From contig JAQOTA010000052.1 in the NCBI GenBank assembly GCA_029532415.1, positions 2,666,001-2,730,000 on the forward strand: a stretch of 64,000 bases of DNA, in the 5' to 3' direction. This stretch comes from Marasmius tenuissimus (Eukaryota > Basidiomycota > Agaricomycetes > Agaricales > Marasmiaceae). The position numbers were made by a program, and so were the translations under genes. The notes under the pieces are model-generated. The model did not search any database, was not told the origin of the DNA, and was given only the letters and a program-made list of their open reading frames with translations. Shown here one piece after another: positions 15,615 through 27,911 of this stretch. Every line of letters starts with the position of its first letter. The first letter of the stretch is position 1.

Positions 15615-16570
15615 TCACATCGACGGAATCTTGCCCGGGAAAAACGCGTCCCCGTCTTTGTTCTCCTTGTACCAAGGCTCGTCGTGCGCCAGGAGGATTC
15701 TAGTTCGGGGAAGCTGGATGAACGATCGCAGTCTCTCTATATGTTCCTCTGCTGCTTTCTTATCGGCATGCGCGCAACGCCCGATGTAACCTGACAGGTT
15801 ATCCGCGATTTGAGATTCTCCTGTGATGAGCCTCCAATGGTGAGCGCTGTCACCTGCTAGAAGCAGCCAGCCCCCATCGCTGGAGGTGCGAGCCACGACG
15901 TTTATGTGTCCAGGTAGGTGGCCGGCCTGAGGTGGGTAGCAGCCAGGTTCATTAAATGTCCTATACATACAAGGAACAGAAGTCTACCCACCGCATCGAC
16001 GATATAAAGGCTCCCGTCTCCGTGATAATCTAGCGCACGAGGAAATGGTCCCAATGGTTTCCAGTCCTCCGTATCCAAGAACTCAGTACGCCCCGCCGGT
16101 AAAAGGTCACTCGCAAATCCCGAATCTGGGTCTGCAGGATACCCAGGCGTAACAAGTCTCTTCGCAGGACCTCCAACCAGAAACGTACTCCTTCCTTGAA
16201 ACGGCCTTGTATCTCCAATATGATCGAAATGGAGGTGAGATAGACATACGACGTCTACATCGTCGGGGGAGAGACCACCCTTCTTCAGTGACTCGCATAC
16301 GTCCTGTGGGATGTCAAGGCGGAAGACCTGCTCGACGTAGCGGACTATAGATGGGGGGTAGTTCTTCCAGTCTTTGCGGAGACCTAGGTCGAATATGAAC
16401 TTGTGTCCGGTTATGGTGTGGCGGAGGAGGAAGGAGAGGGAGGGTGCGACGACGACTTCGCCGGGTTTCCCGTCGTGGATAAACCGTTCGGTGGGGAGGT
16501 GAATGATACCTGCCTCTAGAGCTGAGACTTCGCAGTATGCTTGGGTGGGAGTGGGATGTGGGAGAGACAT
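15615..16570 (-). CDS. metallo-beta-lactamase-fold hydrolase, lactonase-like (copy 1)
   Basis: Zinc hydrolase resembling N-acyl-homoserine-lactone lactonases. Two exons (16570-15992 and 15926-15615) total 891 bases, giving 296 residues. The dinuclear zinc motif is complete: LSHLHFDHIGD (HxHxDH), a later His in AGHLPGHINVV, the bridging Asp in GDSAHHW, and His in ILLAHDEPWY. The intron interrupts between VDA and AGHLPGH, at exactly the same site as in the intact copy at 54180. No signal peptide is seen, so it is probably cytosolic. It lies 270 bases downstream of an F-box gene on the same strand, an arrangement repeated in decayed form at 18980-21238 and 25830-27911. Substrate is unknown; other lactones or esters are as likely as homoserine lactones in a fungus. 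Confidence 0.87.
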
Positions 16571-16840
16571 GGTGGTGGTGAGGTCATAGTCCGGGAAAGC
16601 GTCAAGGGAAGATGATTCACACAGATATGCAAAATCGTTCCCATACGCGTCGGGTCCAGCAGCGCATAAAACAGGTGATGTATGACAGAAAGGAAAGGAA
16701 TGTCGTTTTGGGTCAAATAGATTGATCTGGTTCGGTGGACGTTAGCCCAGAGCCCTGAAGATGAATGTCGAATACCAGTGCTGGGTGATTCACCAGCCGA
16801 CCAATCAGGCATTCGATGAGTCGTCAAAATCCTCGAGGCT

Positions 16841-18509
16841 CTAATCGGAGTCCGAATCTATACTATCCATCTCGACTTCGTCCCAATCGACCTCAATGTT
16901 TGAGCCCACTTCTCCCCTGAGCATCACAACGCTGTTGCGGTATAGGTTTTTGCAACATTCCAAAACAATCTTTGTGACAGGAGTACCAAGCTCTGACCGT
17001 CTCCGGAGCATCTCGACGAGAAACCTTGACATAGGAACTACGTCAAAGTCTACGTCGTAGAAGCCGACTGTAGATAGCGTGGGGTATGGAATCGGTTGAG
17101 TAGTACCGGAAAGGTTCTGAGATAATGATCCAAGAACCACTTCGATAGATATGCCATAGGTTGTGATGGAATGGAGGAGAGGACAACTCCCGAAACGCTG
17201 GATCATCGTACTCTGCCGGAAACTTGGCACCCCTATTCTCAACTCTTCGAGGTACTGAATCGTACCAAGAGATTCCAATAGTCGCTGCAAGATGGGTAGA
17301 ATATCCACTTCGATTCCAGTATGAGCTGGATCCTTCAGCTGAAGGGTGAAATGGGGAGATCGTAAATTGTCGCAGACATCCCCGGCGGTACGATGTTGGG
17401 GGTTCCACACCCTCAACATGATCCCTTCTCCATCAGTATGGCTGAGCTCAAGGCCCTTGACGCGTCGAATCGGAGTCGGGTTGGTTGATCTATCTGAGAA
17501 AAGGCCTGAGATAGAGCCGCACAGGGAGTCCAAGGTATTCTCGAGTTCGTTGGTTTCGAGATGTACGATGGTAGAGGCAGGGAAGGTCATGCGCTGGAGA
17601 AGAGTCACAACCACTATGGCCCTCGATGACAGATATAACCGCTCTAAATAGGGAAGCACAATCGTGAGATCCTGGGGGAGCGTAGCATCGATTCGAGTTG
17701 GACAGTAGTCCAATATATTCACCGACACAAGTTGCGTCGCTGCTTTCAAAGTGAAGGCAATATCCTTGAGCGGCGTGTCAATGGGTGTAGTCATATTCCA
17801 TACGTGGATGGTGGCGAGGTTTCGAAGGGCACTGGACCCCCATGGAATACTGCATCCAATGATGTCGATAGAGATGAGCCGTGGTGCGTCTCCGCCGAGG
17901 AAATTGACAGGTAGCACGGACTGGTCAACTCCGCGCGGTACTAGGTCGATGGAGCGAAGATATGGTGCTGGCTCGGTCATTCTCGCGAGCAGGCTTGTGG
18001 TCTGGTGGGCACTGATACCATACAGTCTCAGGCTGGAGATTTGGGACGGCCGTTCAAGCGCTTCCAATAACAAATCGAAATGTGTCTGTCGAAATTCTGG
18101 GTGACTTCTATTCCAGTCGACGTTGAGAGGAACAGAGCTGCTGTATTTCATCATCTCTCGGGCCATTTCTGGACAACCGAAATCGGGCCACGTCCATACC
18201 GAAGGTGTTCTCGCCGCAATTGTGCGCCACAGACGGCATATGTGCATGACTTTGGGAAATTTGGGTCGGTCCCATTGCCGATCGGTACGACTGGTAGTAA
18301 GTGTGAAGATTTTCCCAATAATTTCGAGAGGTAAACGGCAGACAGGTACCCGTGAGTTGCGGTGGTATTCGAGCTCTTTGAGCTGCCGTCTGACCTTGCC
18401 AATTTGCTCGTCAAACTCCTCCAGCGTGTTGTAAGTGCCCCAATGACCTGTAGGGAGAAATCGATAGTTATCCCAATTCAATATCATCCGTATACTTACT
18501 AGCCTCCAT
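16841..18509 (-). CDS. F-box-like protein 1 (cassette unit 1)
   Basis: Likely substrate receptor of an SCF ubiquitin ligase. Exon 1 is only 10 bases (18509-18500, ATG GAG GCT A), then an intron and exon 2 from 18447; lengths add to 538 codons plus stop. N-terminal coiled-coil (TLEEFDEQIGKVRRQLKEL) is followed by the F-box VCRLPLEIIGKIFTL and HICRLWRTIAARTPSVW. The rest is a leucine-rich repeat-like region with family landmarks NFLGGDAPRL, PWGSSALRNLATIHVWNM, FGSCPLLHSITTYG, and an acidic end (WDEVEMDSIDSDSD). The uninterrupted frame also opens with a Met at 18487, but that lies in the predicted intron; the short exon gives a start that matches seven relatives. Target proteins are unknown. Confidence 0.85.
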
Positions 18510-25829: not shown

Positions 25830-25950
25830 CGCTGGAGGACAAGCGTTCAGTAAGAAGATAAATGATGGCTGCTTCTGGAACTGACACGTCACAATACGTT
25901 TGGGTGAGAGAGGGATGTAGGGGGGAGATGGTGATAGCGAGGTTATATAG
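25830..25950 (-). pseudogene. trace of lactonase start (copy 3)
   Basis: Bases 25855-25947 align without gaps to the start region of lactonase copy 1 (around 16490-16585), sharing blocks such as TTGGGTG, GGGATGT and the GGTTATA/GGTCATA end. Only the first few dozen codons remain and the start codon is altered. It lies about 230 bases downstream of the broken F-box 4, the same place the lactonase occupies in units 1 and 2. Confidence 0.65.
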
Positions 25951-26181
25951 GTAAGTTGAAGCCCAACATATGCGCAAGTGGCGTGTTTACATGCGCACTG
26001 GGATGCGTAGAGCCGTAAAGGTTGATGAGCGACTCGGCGGAATGATTTTCAAGATATGAGGTTGAGCTCGAGGCTTGGGGGGTAATTTGAGATGGCTGGC
26101 TGTGGGCGAGGCGAACAAAAATGTGCCAATTCGACCACGCCTCGTCCTCCGGCCCCTCCCCCAGCGTTTGACGACGGGCCG

Positions 26182-27911
26182 TCAGAAATCCCCAAAATCT
26201 GAGTCCGCGTCTCTACTTTCCATTTTGACTCCGTCCCAATCGATTTCAACGTCCGAGCCAACCGCTTCTTTCAGCAAATCGACGTCGTATGCATATAGCT
26301 CCGTGCAAGTTTCCAGGGTAACCTCTTTAATGGGGTGGCCGTGCTGTACCCGTCTTTTTAGCCAGTCGCCAATCAACTCTGTCGACACATCTGTTGAGCC
26401 AAAGTTCACCTCGCGGATGCTGACAGTAGATAGTGCGGGGTATACGACACTATCACATTGGGAAGCCGCGTGAGGATCAGGAGAGAAGGATTCTATAACC
26501 GTTGCAGCGCATGCGCCGTAGATTTGCATAGCGTGAAGAAGACGACAATTCCCGAAATAATGAACCATGGCATCTCGCGAGAAACCTTTGGCTCCTATCG
26601 TCAACAATTCAAGGTGCTCGAGGGTATCTACAGCACCCAGTAGGCGCTGGTAAGTCGGTAGCAGCATGTCTGCCTGGATCCCAGCATGAACGTGATCTTT
26701 CCGAAGCCTGAGCATGAAATGATGATATGGCGATGCATTGGGGACAAGTCTTTGAGGATCCTCGTAATTCCACACTACCAACGAGATAGTTTCGCCACGG
26801 GTACGAGTTAGGAGAAGGTCCTTTACGATCTTCAAATTACTTGAAGCCGCGGCTCCCCTCGAAAAGAGGCGTGAAAAAGATGTCGTCAGGAAATCCAAGG
26901 CATCCTCGTAATGAGTAGGCTCGAGTTCGACAACAGCAGAGATCGGGAGGGGTATGCGCTGAAGAAGGGCGGCGATAACACGGGCACAAGACGACAGGCG
27001 CACATACTTCAGATGAGGAAGAACAATGGCGAGGTCTTGGGGGAGCGCGGTGCTGGTGTAGGCGGAGCAAAAGTCTGACATGTCTACCGACTCAAGGTTC
27101 TTCGCCAATTGCAAAGTCGCCGCAATGTCATGAAGAAGCGTATCGCTGGGTATTGTCGTGCCTGATATGTGTAGGTTGGTGAGATTCCGTAGGATGGGAG
27201 AGCCCCACGGAATATTGCACTCTCGAGTCTTGAGAGAGGTGAGGCGAGGCGCATAATCGCCGAGGAAATTGGCAGGTAATAAGAATGAACTCCCTCGTGT
27301 GGGGTTAATTATGATAGATTGAATATAGGGTGCCGGCTGAGTCATTTTGGAGAGAAGGGTTGTGAGCTTGTCTGAAGAGAGGCCAGAAATTTTGAGACTC
27401 GAGATCTGTGTTGGTCATTCAAACACTTCCGACAGCAAACCGTAATGCTTCGAAAGGTCTAGAAGAGGTCGGGGCTCTGGGTGCCACTCGACGTTGATAG
27501 GGAAAGACCCGCTGTACTTCATCATCTCCCTCGCCATTTCTAGACAACGGAAATCCGGCCACGACCACATTGAAGGTGTGTTCATTGCTATCGTGCGCCA
27601 TAAGCGACATACGTGCACTACTTCACTAATTTTGGGGGATTTAAGTCGGTGCCAATTGTAGCAATTGTTCGTGAGCGTGAAGATTTTCCCGATGATTTCG
27701 ACTGGTAAACGGCAGACAGTGAGCCGTGAATTGCGGTGATATTCGAGTTCCTTGAGCTGGCGTCTCAGTTTGTCAATCTGCTCATCGAGCTCTTCCAGTG
27801 TGCTGTAGGCATTCCAACGGCCTGCCGTGAAGGAGAAATGAGCGATCGTTCCAATAGTATCTTCGATGTCAGAACGTCAAGAATGGTTTGATAATGCTTA
27901 CCAGTCAACAT
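26182..27911 (-). pseudogene. F-box-like protein 4, one premature TGA (cassette unit 3)
   Basis: Same architecture as F-box 1 and 2: 10-base exon 1 (27911-27902, ATG TTG ACT G) and exon 2 from 27821. The combined length is exactly 550 codons, so the frame is intact from start to stop except for one TGA at 27417-27415. Relatives read LERPSQISS here; this copy reads FE-stop-PTQISS, so an arginine CGA has become TGA. Before the stop are the coiled-coil TLEELDEQIDKLRRQLKELE and F-box VCRLPVEIIGKIFTL; after it are MTQPAPYIQS, NFLGDYAPRLTSL, PWGSPILRNLTNLHISG and an acidic end. The truncated product would keep the F-box but lose the leucine-rich part. Stop readthrough or a sequencing error are alternatives. 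Confidence 0.85.

What the first reader, a model, noticed from the sequence alone, without database searches (positions are those of the whole stretch)
15615..27911. Lactonase plus F-box cassette triplicated, with stepwise decay
Unit 1 has both genes intact (lactonase 15615-16570, F-box 16841-18509). Unit 2 has an intact F-box (19579-21238) but a half-deleted lactonase (18980-19387). Unit 3 has an F-box with one stop (26182-27911) and about 100 bases of lactonase start (25830-25950). Orientation and spacing (190-270 bases) are the same throughout. The pairing of a zinc lactonase with an F-box protein as a duplicated module is unusual and might reflect a functional link, or simple hitch-hiking.
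Basis: partly seen in the sequence, partly recalled or inferred. Interest (0 to 1): 0.75.

Follow-up and report, generated by a model that had tools for sequence, protein, structure and literature searches.

The report
Duplicated F-box genes with hitchhiking lactonase
In a cacao-associated mushroom, an F-box gene was copied in tandem together with the neighbouring lactonase gene; the F-box copies largely lasted while the extra lactonase copies rotted away, so the pairing looks like a passenger effect and not a working partnership.

Summary
Three F-box/lactonase units lie head to tail on the minus strand of a Marasmius tenuissimus contig. Unit 1 is intact. Unit 2 has an intact F-box and a frame-broken, partly deleted lactonase. 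Unit 3 has an F-box with one in-frame stop and about 90-107 bases of lactonase. The spacer between the two genes is homologous in units 1 and 2, and both relics resemble the unit 1 lactonase more than the other lactonase in the window, so the pair was copied together. The functional-link reading is not supported. A fourth F-box copy 57 kb outside the window (80% DNA identity to unit 2) keeps the spacer but shows no lactonase. Four of five F-boxes in a related array are followed by none. Two of four intact-looking lactonases of this clade have no such F-box within 6.4 kb. The lactonase clade is widespread in Agaricales; named matches to the F-box subfamily came only from Marasmius. A sister species has a lactonase and an F-box of these clades three locus tags apart, so the linkage probably predates that split. 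Best reading: birth and death in a fast-evolving F-box array, with a conserved lactonase as passenger.

The parts
16841..18509 (-). Unit 1 F-box/LRR gene, intact (3-codon exon 1, short intron, then open to the stop at 16841)
   Evidence: ORF 16841-18487; F-box-like PF12937 E 0.0014, below Pfam's cut-off; LRR-type model; exon 1 and intron are my reading
16571..16840 (-). Unit 1 spacer between F-box stop and lactonase start, homologous to the unit 2 spacer
   Evidence: 71% over 151 nt between 16685-16835 and 19459-19609; alignment
15615..16570 (-). Unit 1 MBL-fold lactonase-like gene, intact, 296 aa, one 65-nt intron (15991-15927)
   Evidence: PF00753 E 1.3e-12 for exon 1; seven expected metal-ligand positions present
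19579..21238 (-). Unit 2 F-box gene, intact (PM082_003665)
18905..19387 (-). Unit 2 lactonase relic: frame-breaking indels, several internal deletions (98 bases in all), second exon not found
26182..27911 (-). Unit 3 F-box gene with one in-frame stop; 387-aa open frame after it
25841..25947 (-). Unit 3 lactonase relic (start region only)
   Evidence: 74% over 107 nt to unit 1
40825..51664 (+). Plus-strand array of five related F-box genes (40825, 43088, 45493, 47660, 49895) with no lactonase match between them
54180..55125 (+). Second intact lactonase (PM082_003682), separated from the F-box array by a reductase-like gene (52597-53997)
55772..55979 (+). 3' lactonase relic in the second copy of a tandem duplication (55000-55785 / 55862-56655, 81%)

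Best explanation
A fast-evolving F-box/LRR gene next to a lactonase gene was copied by tandem segmental duplication at least twice (unit 3 split first, then units 1 and 2), with the lactonase carried along because it lies just downstream. A further copy of the unit 2 lineage ended up 57 kb outside the window, in the opposite orientation, without the lactonase. F-box copies were mostly kept as candidate substrate adaptors of SCF-type ubiquitin ligases. Redundant lactonase copies lost selection and decayed in proportion to age, leaving one intact copy in unit 1. Shown: joint copying, order of splits, decay, unpaired relatives. Inferred: F-box binding of SKP1 and substrates, lactone-ring hydrolysis by the zinc enzyme, and that F-box retention drives the array.
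For: One continuous match over F-box, spacer and lactonase start between units 1 and 2. The unit 2 relic shares 71 sites with unit 1 alone against 32 with the 54180 lactonase alone (472 columns); the unit 3 relic 16 against 7 (89 columns). F-box tree (unit 3,(unit 1,(2607 copy,(unit 2, AFHP31)))) with every fork in that clade at least 97/92. dS: unit 1/unit 3 1.25 (open 3' part only, 373 codons), unit 1/unit 2 0.74, unit 2/2607 copy 0.33. 2607 copy: spacer kept, no lactonase tblastn hit better than E 0.8, unit 1-type upstream sequence about 95 bases further on. dN/dS 0.36-0.49 for six F-box pairs of this clade against 0.06 for one lactonase pair. At least 147 F-box matches in the genome, so F-box neighbours are common. 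Lactonase: 834 proteins at E <= 0.001; F-box: 6 and 9 proteins, the named ones all from Marasmius.
Against: The pair was copied together at least twice, and members of both clades are linked in the sister species AFHP31 (lactonase PQX77_010567, F-box PQX77_010564). The plus-strand array also ends with a lactonase on the same strand. These would be expected if some linkage mattered. The F-box homologue searches scored only the candidates sharing most words (7,994 and 7,993), and three unnamed weak matches (P0127-P0129) are of unknown origin, so F-box relatives in other genera may be missed. The dN/dS of the lactonase rests on one pair with near-saturated dS (2.15), and two plus-array F-box pairs are slower than the clade in question (0.27 and 0.23). 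Short DNA matches of 15 and 19 bases to the lactonase gene do occur at the 2607 site (E 0.03 and 0.11); I take them as chance.
Confidence: 0.86

Rival explanations
1. Functional pair: the F-box protein and the lactonase act in one pathway (for example, response to bacterial lactone signals, or turnover of the lactonase), and the module was duplicated because of that.
For: Joint duplication at least twice; members of both clades within three locus tags in AFHP31; both clusters in the window have F-box then lactonase on the same strand.
Against: Lactonase broken or absent in 3 of 4 copies of the clade while 3 of 4 F-box frames stay open; no lactonase match between the five F-boxes of the plus array; the C28 lactonase pair has no match to any of nine F-box proteins of this subfamily in the 16 kb read around it (tblastn E <= 0.1).
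Confidence: 0.06
2. The lactonase itself was the selected cargo (dosage or new substrate) and F-boxes hitch-hiked.
For: Lactonases also duplicated elsewhere: tandem pair on C28, pair with consecutive tags in M. crinis-equi, partial duplicate at 55772-55979.
Against: In the three units and the 2607 copy it is the lactonase that decays or is missing; F-box copies mostly persist and diverge.
Confidence: 0.05
3. Ancient inverted duplication of one F-box/lactonase segment produced both arms (minus at 15.6-27.9 kb, plus at 40.8-55.1 kb), after which each arm grew its own F-boxes. This would make the linkage older than the tandem array; it is compatible with the best explanation.
For: Mirror-image layout with a lactonase at each outer end; the 54180 gene is sister to unit 1 plus its AFHP31 orthologue (86/85).
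Against: The reductase-like gene separates array and lactonase on the plus arm; no spacer homology between the arms beyond the lactonase start; F-box divergence between arms is saturated, so the age cannot be compared.
Confidence: 0.35

Closest known systems
MBL-fold N-acyl homoserine lactonases (AiiA, AiiB/AttM, GcL, AhlX) and 4-pyridoxolactonase
   Same: Fold (best Foldseek E 1.2e-15, TM normalised by target about 0.75-0.85 for the best matches) and the seven expected metal-ligand positions
   Different: Only 13-20% identity to those structures; 46 bits against a 390-bit cut-off for the AttM model; true substrate unknown
Intracellular lactonases of Coprinopsis cinerea (Stockli et al., cited in PMC6126850, passages seen; the paper itself is not held)
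   Same: A lactonase of another Agaricales mushroom; that it is the same protein family is my recollection
   Different: Sequences not compared here; induction by bacteria and activity not tested for this gene
F-box/LRR substrate receptors of SCF ubiquitin ligases (TIR1, COI1, D3, SKP2)
   Same: N-terminal F-box-like motif and LRR-type fold; TIR1 is the third structural match, COI1, SKP2 and D3 rank 11 to 23
   Different: The two best matches are NLR-type proteins (NLRC4 inflammasome, NRC2); TM only about 0.2-0.4; F-box score of unit 1 below Pfam's cut-off; named homologues only from Marasmius
Birth-and-death evolution of tandem gene families with hitch-hiking neighbours (general knowledge, no call)
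   Same: Tandem copies, unequal retention, graded pseudogenes
   Different: Nothing essential

Membership tests
Tandemly duplicated two-gene segment | Same order, strand and similar spacing in all copies | tested here: met
   Three units on the minus strand, gaps 270, 191, about 252
Tandemly duplicated two-gene segment | Homologous sequence between the two genes | tested here: met
   Units 1 and 2: 71% over 151 nt. Unit 3 spacer alignable only weakly, inside a 59% alignment with many gaps
Tandemly duplicated two-gene segment | Relics closest to the lactonase of the same array | tested here: met
   71 vs 32 and 16 vs 7 discriminating sites
Functional gene pair kept by selection | Both genes retained in copies | tested here: not met
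   Lactonase intact in 1 of 4 copies of the F-box clade
Functional gene pair kept by selection | Adjacency in other species | tested here: inconclusive
   AFHP31: tags 010564 and 010567, contig of equal length; M. crinis-equi genes on contigs of different length; no eukaryote genome collection to read
MBL-fold AHL lactonase | HxHxDH plus H, D and H ligands (pattern recalled, not from a call) | tested here: met
   48 of 48 aligned relatives (48 chosen by me of 120 listed) and unit 1
MBL-fold AHL lactonase | Score over the curated cut-off of a named lactonase family (AttM, AiiA) | tested here: not met
   46.4 of 390 and 39.2 of 375 bits for P0001, the AFHP31 orthologue
MBL-fold AHL lactonase | Hydrolyses lactones | not testable with these tools
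   needs an enzyme assay
F-box protein | F-box motif (PF12937) | tested here: inconclusive
   9 of 9 subfamily members match at E <= 0.01, but unit 1 scores 18.8 and unit 2 23.5 of 24.3 bits; the 2607 copy (32.7) and some array members exceed it
F-box protein | Binds SKP1/cullin | not testable with these tools
   none

The most novel reading that the evidence does not exclude
The F-box/lactonase linkage is an old functional pair of Marasmius in which the F-box regulates, or senses alongside, an enzyme that destroys bacterial lactone signals; unit 1 is the working copy and the others are escaped F-boxes taking new substrates.
Probability: 0.04. Interest if true: 0.6.

Novelty: new member of a known kind. 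Interest (0 to 1): 0.2.

Why it matters
It is a clear example, with the order of events readable, of a neighbour gene copied as a passenger in a growing F-box array and then lost, and it warns against reading function from local gene pairs. It also places lactonases with predicted signal-quenching folds in a cacao-associated fungus (two intact copies in this window, two intact-looking ones on another contig), which is of modest interest for fungus-bacterium interaction.

Tried and rejected
Chance resemblance rejected. Independent insertion of lactonase beside each F-box rejected: spacer homology and relic affinity. Other copies of the module elsewhere in the genome: none found with the spacer-plus-lactonase DNA (4 matches: unit 1, 54180, unit 2 and one C28 gene; this search missed the unit 3 relic and the second C28 gene, so it is not exhaustive). 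The unit 1 upstream sequence found only itself genome-wide, although local BLAST saw weak matches at the 2607 site and at unit 2, again a limit of sensitivity. A first reading of the unit 2 relic as having one 40-codon gap was dropped: the alignment shows several smaller deletions. Orthologous adjacency in other fungi could not be read: the whole-genome and contig collections offered hold prokaryotes, viruses, phages, plasmids and metagenomes, and no fungal one. Paper searches: lactonase with F-box, basidiomycete and gene duplication gave 0 papers; F-box with Marasmius gave one paper, on a fungus and rice growth (listing only); general searches on F-box genes in mushrooms (listings) led only to one passage that counts F-box proteins among development-linked ubiquitination genes of Agaricomycetes (PMC8893723, one passage seen). 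A transposon as the copying agent was not tested.
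Full report
What the window is. The window is a stretch of contig C5 of a 71-Mb genome in 70 contigs; C5 has 3,962,239 bases. Protein matches on a contig of the same length are named Marasmius tenuissimus, PM082 locus tags, so I take the species to be M. tenuissimus. It is reported as a cause of thread blight of cacao (start of the abstract of PMC8581569, seen in the listing).

The observation. Three units lie head to tail on the minus strand, each F-box then lactonase. Unit 1 is intact in both genes; the lactonase has a 65-nt GT-AG intron (15991-15927) and a 296-aa product. 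Unit 2 has an intact F-box; its lactonase relic runs from 19387 to about 18905 with 7 deletions (98 bases in all) and 3 insertions (8 bases) against unit 1, stops in all three frames and no convincing match to the second exon. Unit 3 has one in-frame stop in the F-box in 554 aligned columns and a 107-base lactonase relic.

Copied together. Units 1 and 2 align as one piece through F-box, spacer and lactonase start (68% over 2,214 columns; spacer block 71%). The unit 2 relic has 71 sites shared with unit 1 only against 32 with the 54180 lactonase only, in 472 columns; the unit 3 relic 16 against 7 in 89 columns. The unit 3 spacer aligns only weakly (59%, many gaps), as expected for the oldest unit. 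The F-box tree of 12 rows gives unit 3 first, then unit 1, then a copy at C5:2607364, then unit 2 with AFHP31 PQX77_010564, every fork in that clade with at least 97/92 support. Homologues left out of that tree: P0121 (part of unit 1), P0126 (shorter second-strain model) and P0127-P0129 (weak matches). dS falls in the same order: 1.25 (unit 1/unit 3, 373 codons after the stop), 0.74 (unit 1/unit 2), 0.33 (unit 2/2607 copy). Decay of the lactonase is graded by age.

The fourth copy. The F-box at C5:2607364-2608935 (PM082_003632), 57 kb outside the window and on the other strand, is 80% identical to unit 2 over 2.1 kb of DNA. The match runs through the F-box into the spacer and stops before the lactonase start. 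After about 95 bases it resumes with sequence like that upstream of the unit 1 F-box (E 1e-6), where units 2 and 1 have about 665 bases including the relic. No lactonase tblastn match better than E 0.8 was found in the 11 kb read there; 15- and 19-base DNA matches at E 0.03 and 0.11 I take as chance. I read this as a copy of the unit 2/unit 1 junction from which the lactonase was lost; that is an inference from a weak but well-placed match. So the lactonase is intact in 1 of 4 copies of this F-box clade in this genome, while the F-box frame is open in 3 of 4.

Unpaired relatives. A plus-strand array of five related F-boxes (40825-51664) has no lactonase match between its members (tblastn of the window, E up to 10). 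After it comes a reductase-like gene (52597-53997, PF01370) and then an intact second lactonase (54180-55125). The genome search with exon 1 of the unit 1 lactonase gave 13 matches: 4 intact-looking genes of this clade (unit 1, 54180 and a tandem pair on C28), 2 overlapping matches to the unit 2 relic, and 7 distant ones on C18 at 27-37% identity; it missed the short unit 3 relic. In the 16 kb read around the C28 pair, which extends 7.3 and 6.4 kb beyond it, none of nine F-box proteins of this subfamily matched at E <= 0.1, while all nine matched at the 2607 site as a control. The nearest F-box match listed on C28 is at 2514469, about 24 kb away, in a capped list. F-box genes are very common here: at least 147 Pfam matches with only 150 of 822 candidates scored, and about 11 F-box genes in this 64-kb window (10 by Pfam at E <= 0.01, plus unit 3 by homology). 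An F-box neighbour is therefore unremarkable.

Other species. The lactonase search gave 834 proteins at E <= 0.001 among 3,373 candidates, 120 listed; the named ones listed come from mushroom genera such as Marasmius, Moniliophthora, Pholiota, Lentinula and Pleurotus, which I know as Agaricales. The F-box searches gave 6 and 9 proteins, six of them the same; the named ones come only from Marasmius and three weak ones are unnamed. Only 7,994 and 7,993 candidates were scored, so absence elsewhere is weak evidence. The linkage therefore probably predates that split, although strict adjacency is not shown, and no AFHP31 counterpart of the unit 1 F-box itself was found. In M. crinis-equi the two lie on contigs of different length (20,953 and 22,182). 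In M. oreades and M. fiardii lactonases were found and no F-box of this subfamily. The lactonase tree (19 rows: unit 1 plus 18 of the 120 listed) places unit 1 with AFHP31 (100/99) and the 54180 gene as their sister (86/85).

What the proteins do. The lactonase is an MBL-fold hydrolase with all seven expected metal-ligand positions (pattern recalled) in 48 of 48 aligned relatives, chosen by me from the 120 listed, and in unit 1. The model of the AFHP31 orthologue (pLDDT 94) matches 4-pyridoxolactonase and AiiA-type lactonases best. It scores far below the cut-offs of named bacterial families. Lactone hydrolysis is an inference. Intracellular lactonases of Coprinopsis cinerea are described as a sink for quorum signals of gram-negative bacteria in PMC6126850 (passages seen); I compared no Coprinopsis sequence. 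The F-box proteins carry a weak F-box-like motif (9 of 9 at E <= 0.01) and a predicted LRR-type body (pLDDT 77, N-terminus poor, nine sequences in the alignment). Its two best structural matches are NLR-type proteins, the third is TIR1, and COI1, SKP2 and D3 follow at ranks 11 to 23. A role as SCF substrate adaptor is inferred. F-box pairs of this clade evolve fast (dN/dS 0.36-0.49 in six pairs), two plus-array pairs less so (0.27, 0.23), the lactonase slowly (0.06 in one pair, dS 2.15, near saturation).

Verdict. The pairing is best explained by tandem duplication of an F-box gene with its downstream neighbour as passenger, followed by decay of the passenger. A functional link is not excluded but has no support beyond linkage. 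The finding is ordinary in kind.

Noticed in passing
28326-29553: Inverted repeat with 60-nt perfect arms (28508-28567 / 29436-29495), partly matching further out, 868 nt apart, just upstream of unit 3: looks like a transposon or foldback element.
   Followed up: no
55000-56655: Tandem duplication (81%) of the 3' end of the 54180 lactonase and what follows it, including a Dabb-domain frame (56090-56701), leaving a 3' lactonase relic.
   Followed up: partly
40825-51664: Five-gene plus-strand F-box array, mirror image to the minus-strand units, each arm with a lactonase at its outer end: possible old inverted duplication.
   Followed up: partly
L022, L053, L054 (C5:2602001-2613000): The fourth F-box copy lies among repeated minus-strand ORFs of another family with a transmembrane-like stretch by eye (three similar frames).
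   Followed up: no
L010, L011 (C28:2486786-2491714): Tandem pair of intact-looking lactonases of the same clade (66% identity to unit 1 over exon 1) away from this F-box subfamily.
   Followed up: partly
L013-L019 (C18:523931-601646): Seven distant lactonase-like matches at 27-37% identity within 78 kb.
   Followed up: no
59441-60997: Long plus-strand ORF with proline-rich PVxPP repeats (short repeats at 60077-60339) and no Pfam match at E <= 0.01.
   Followed up: no
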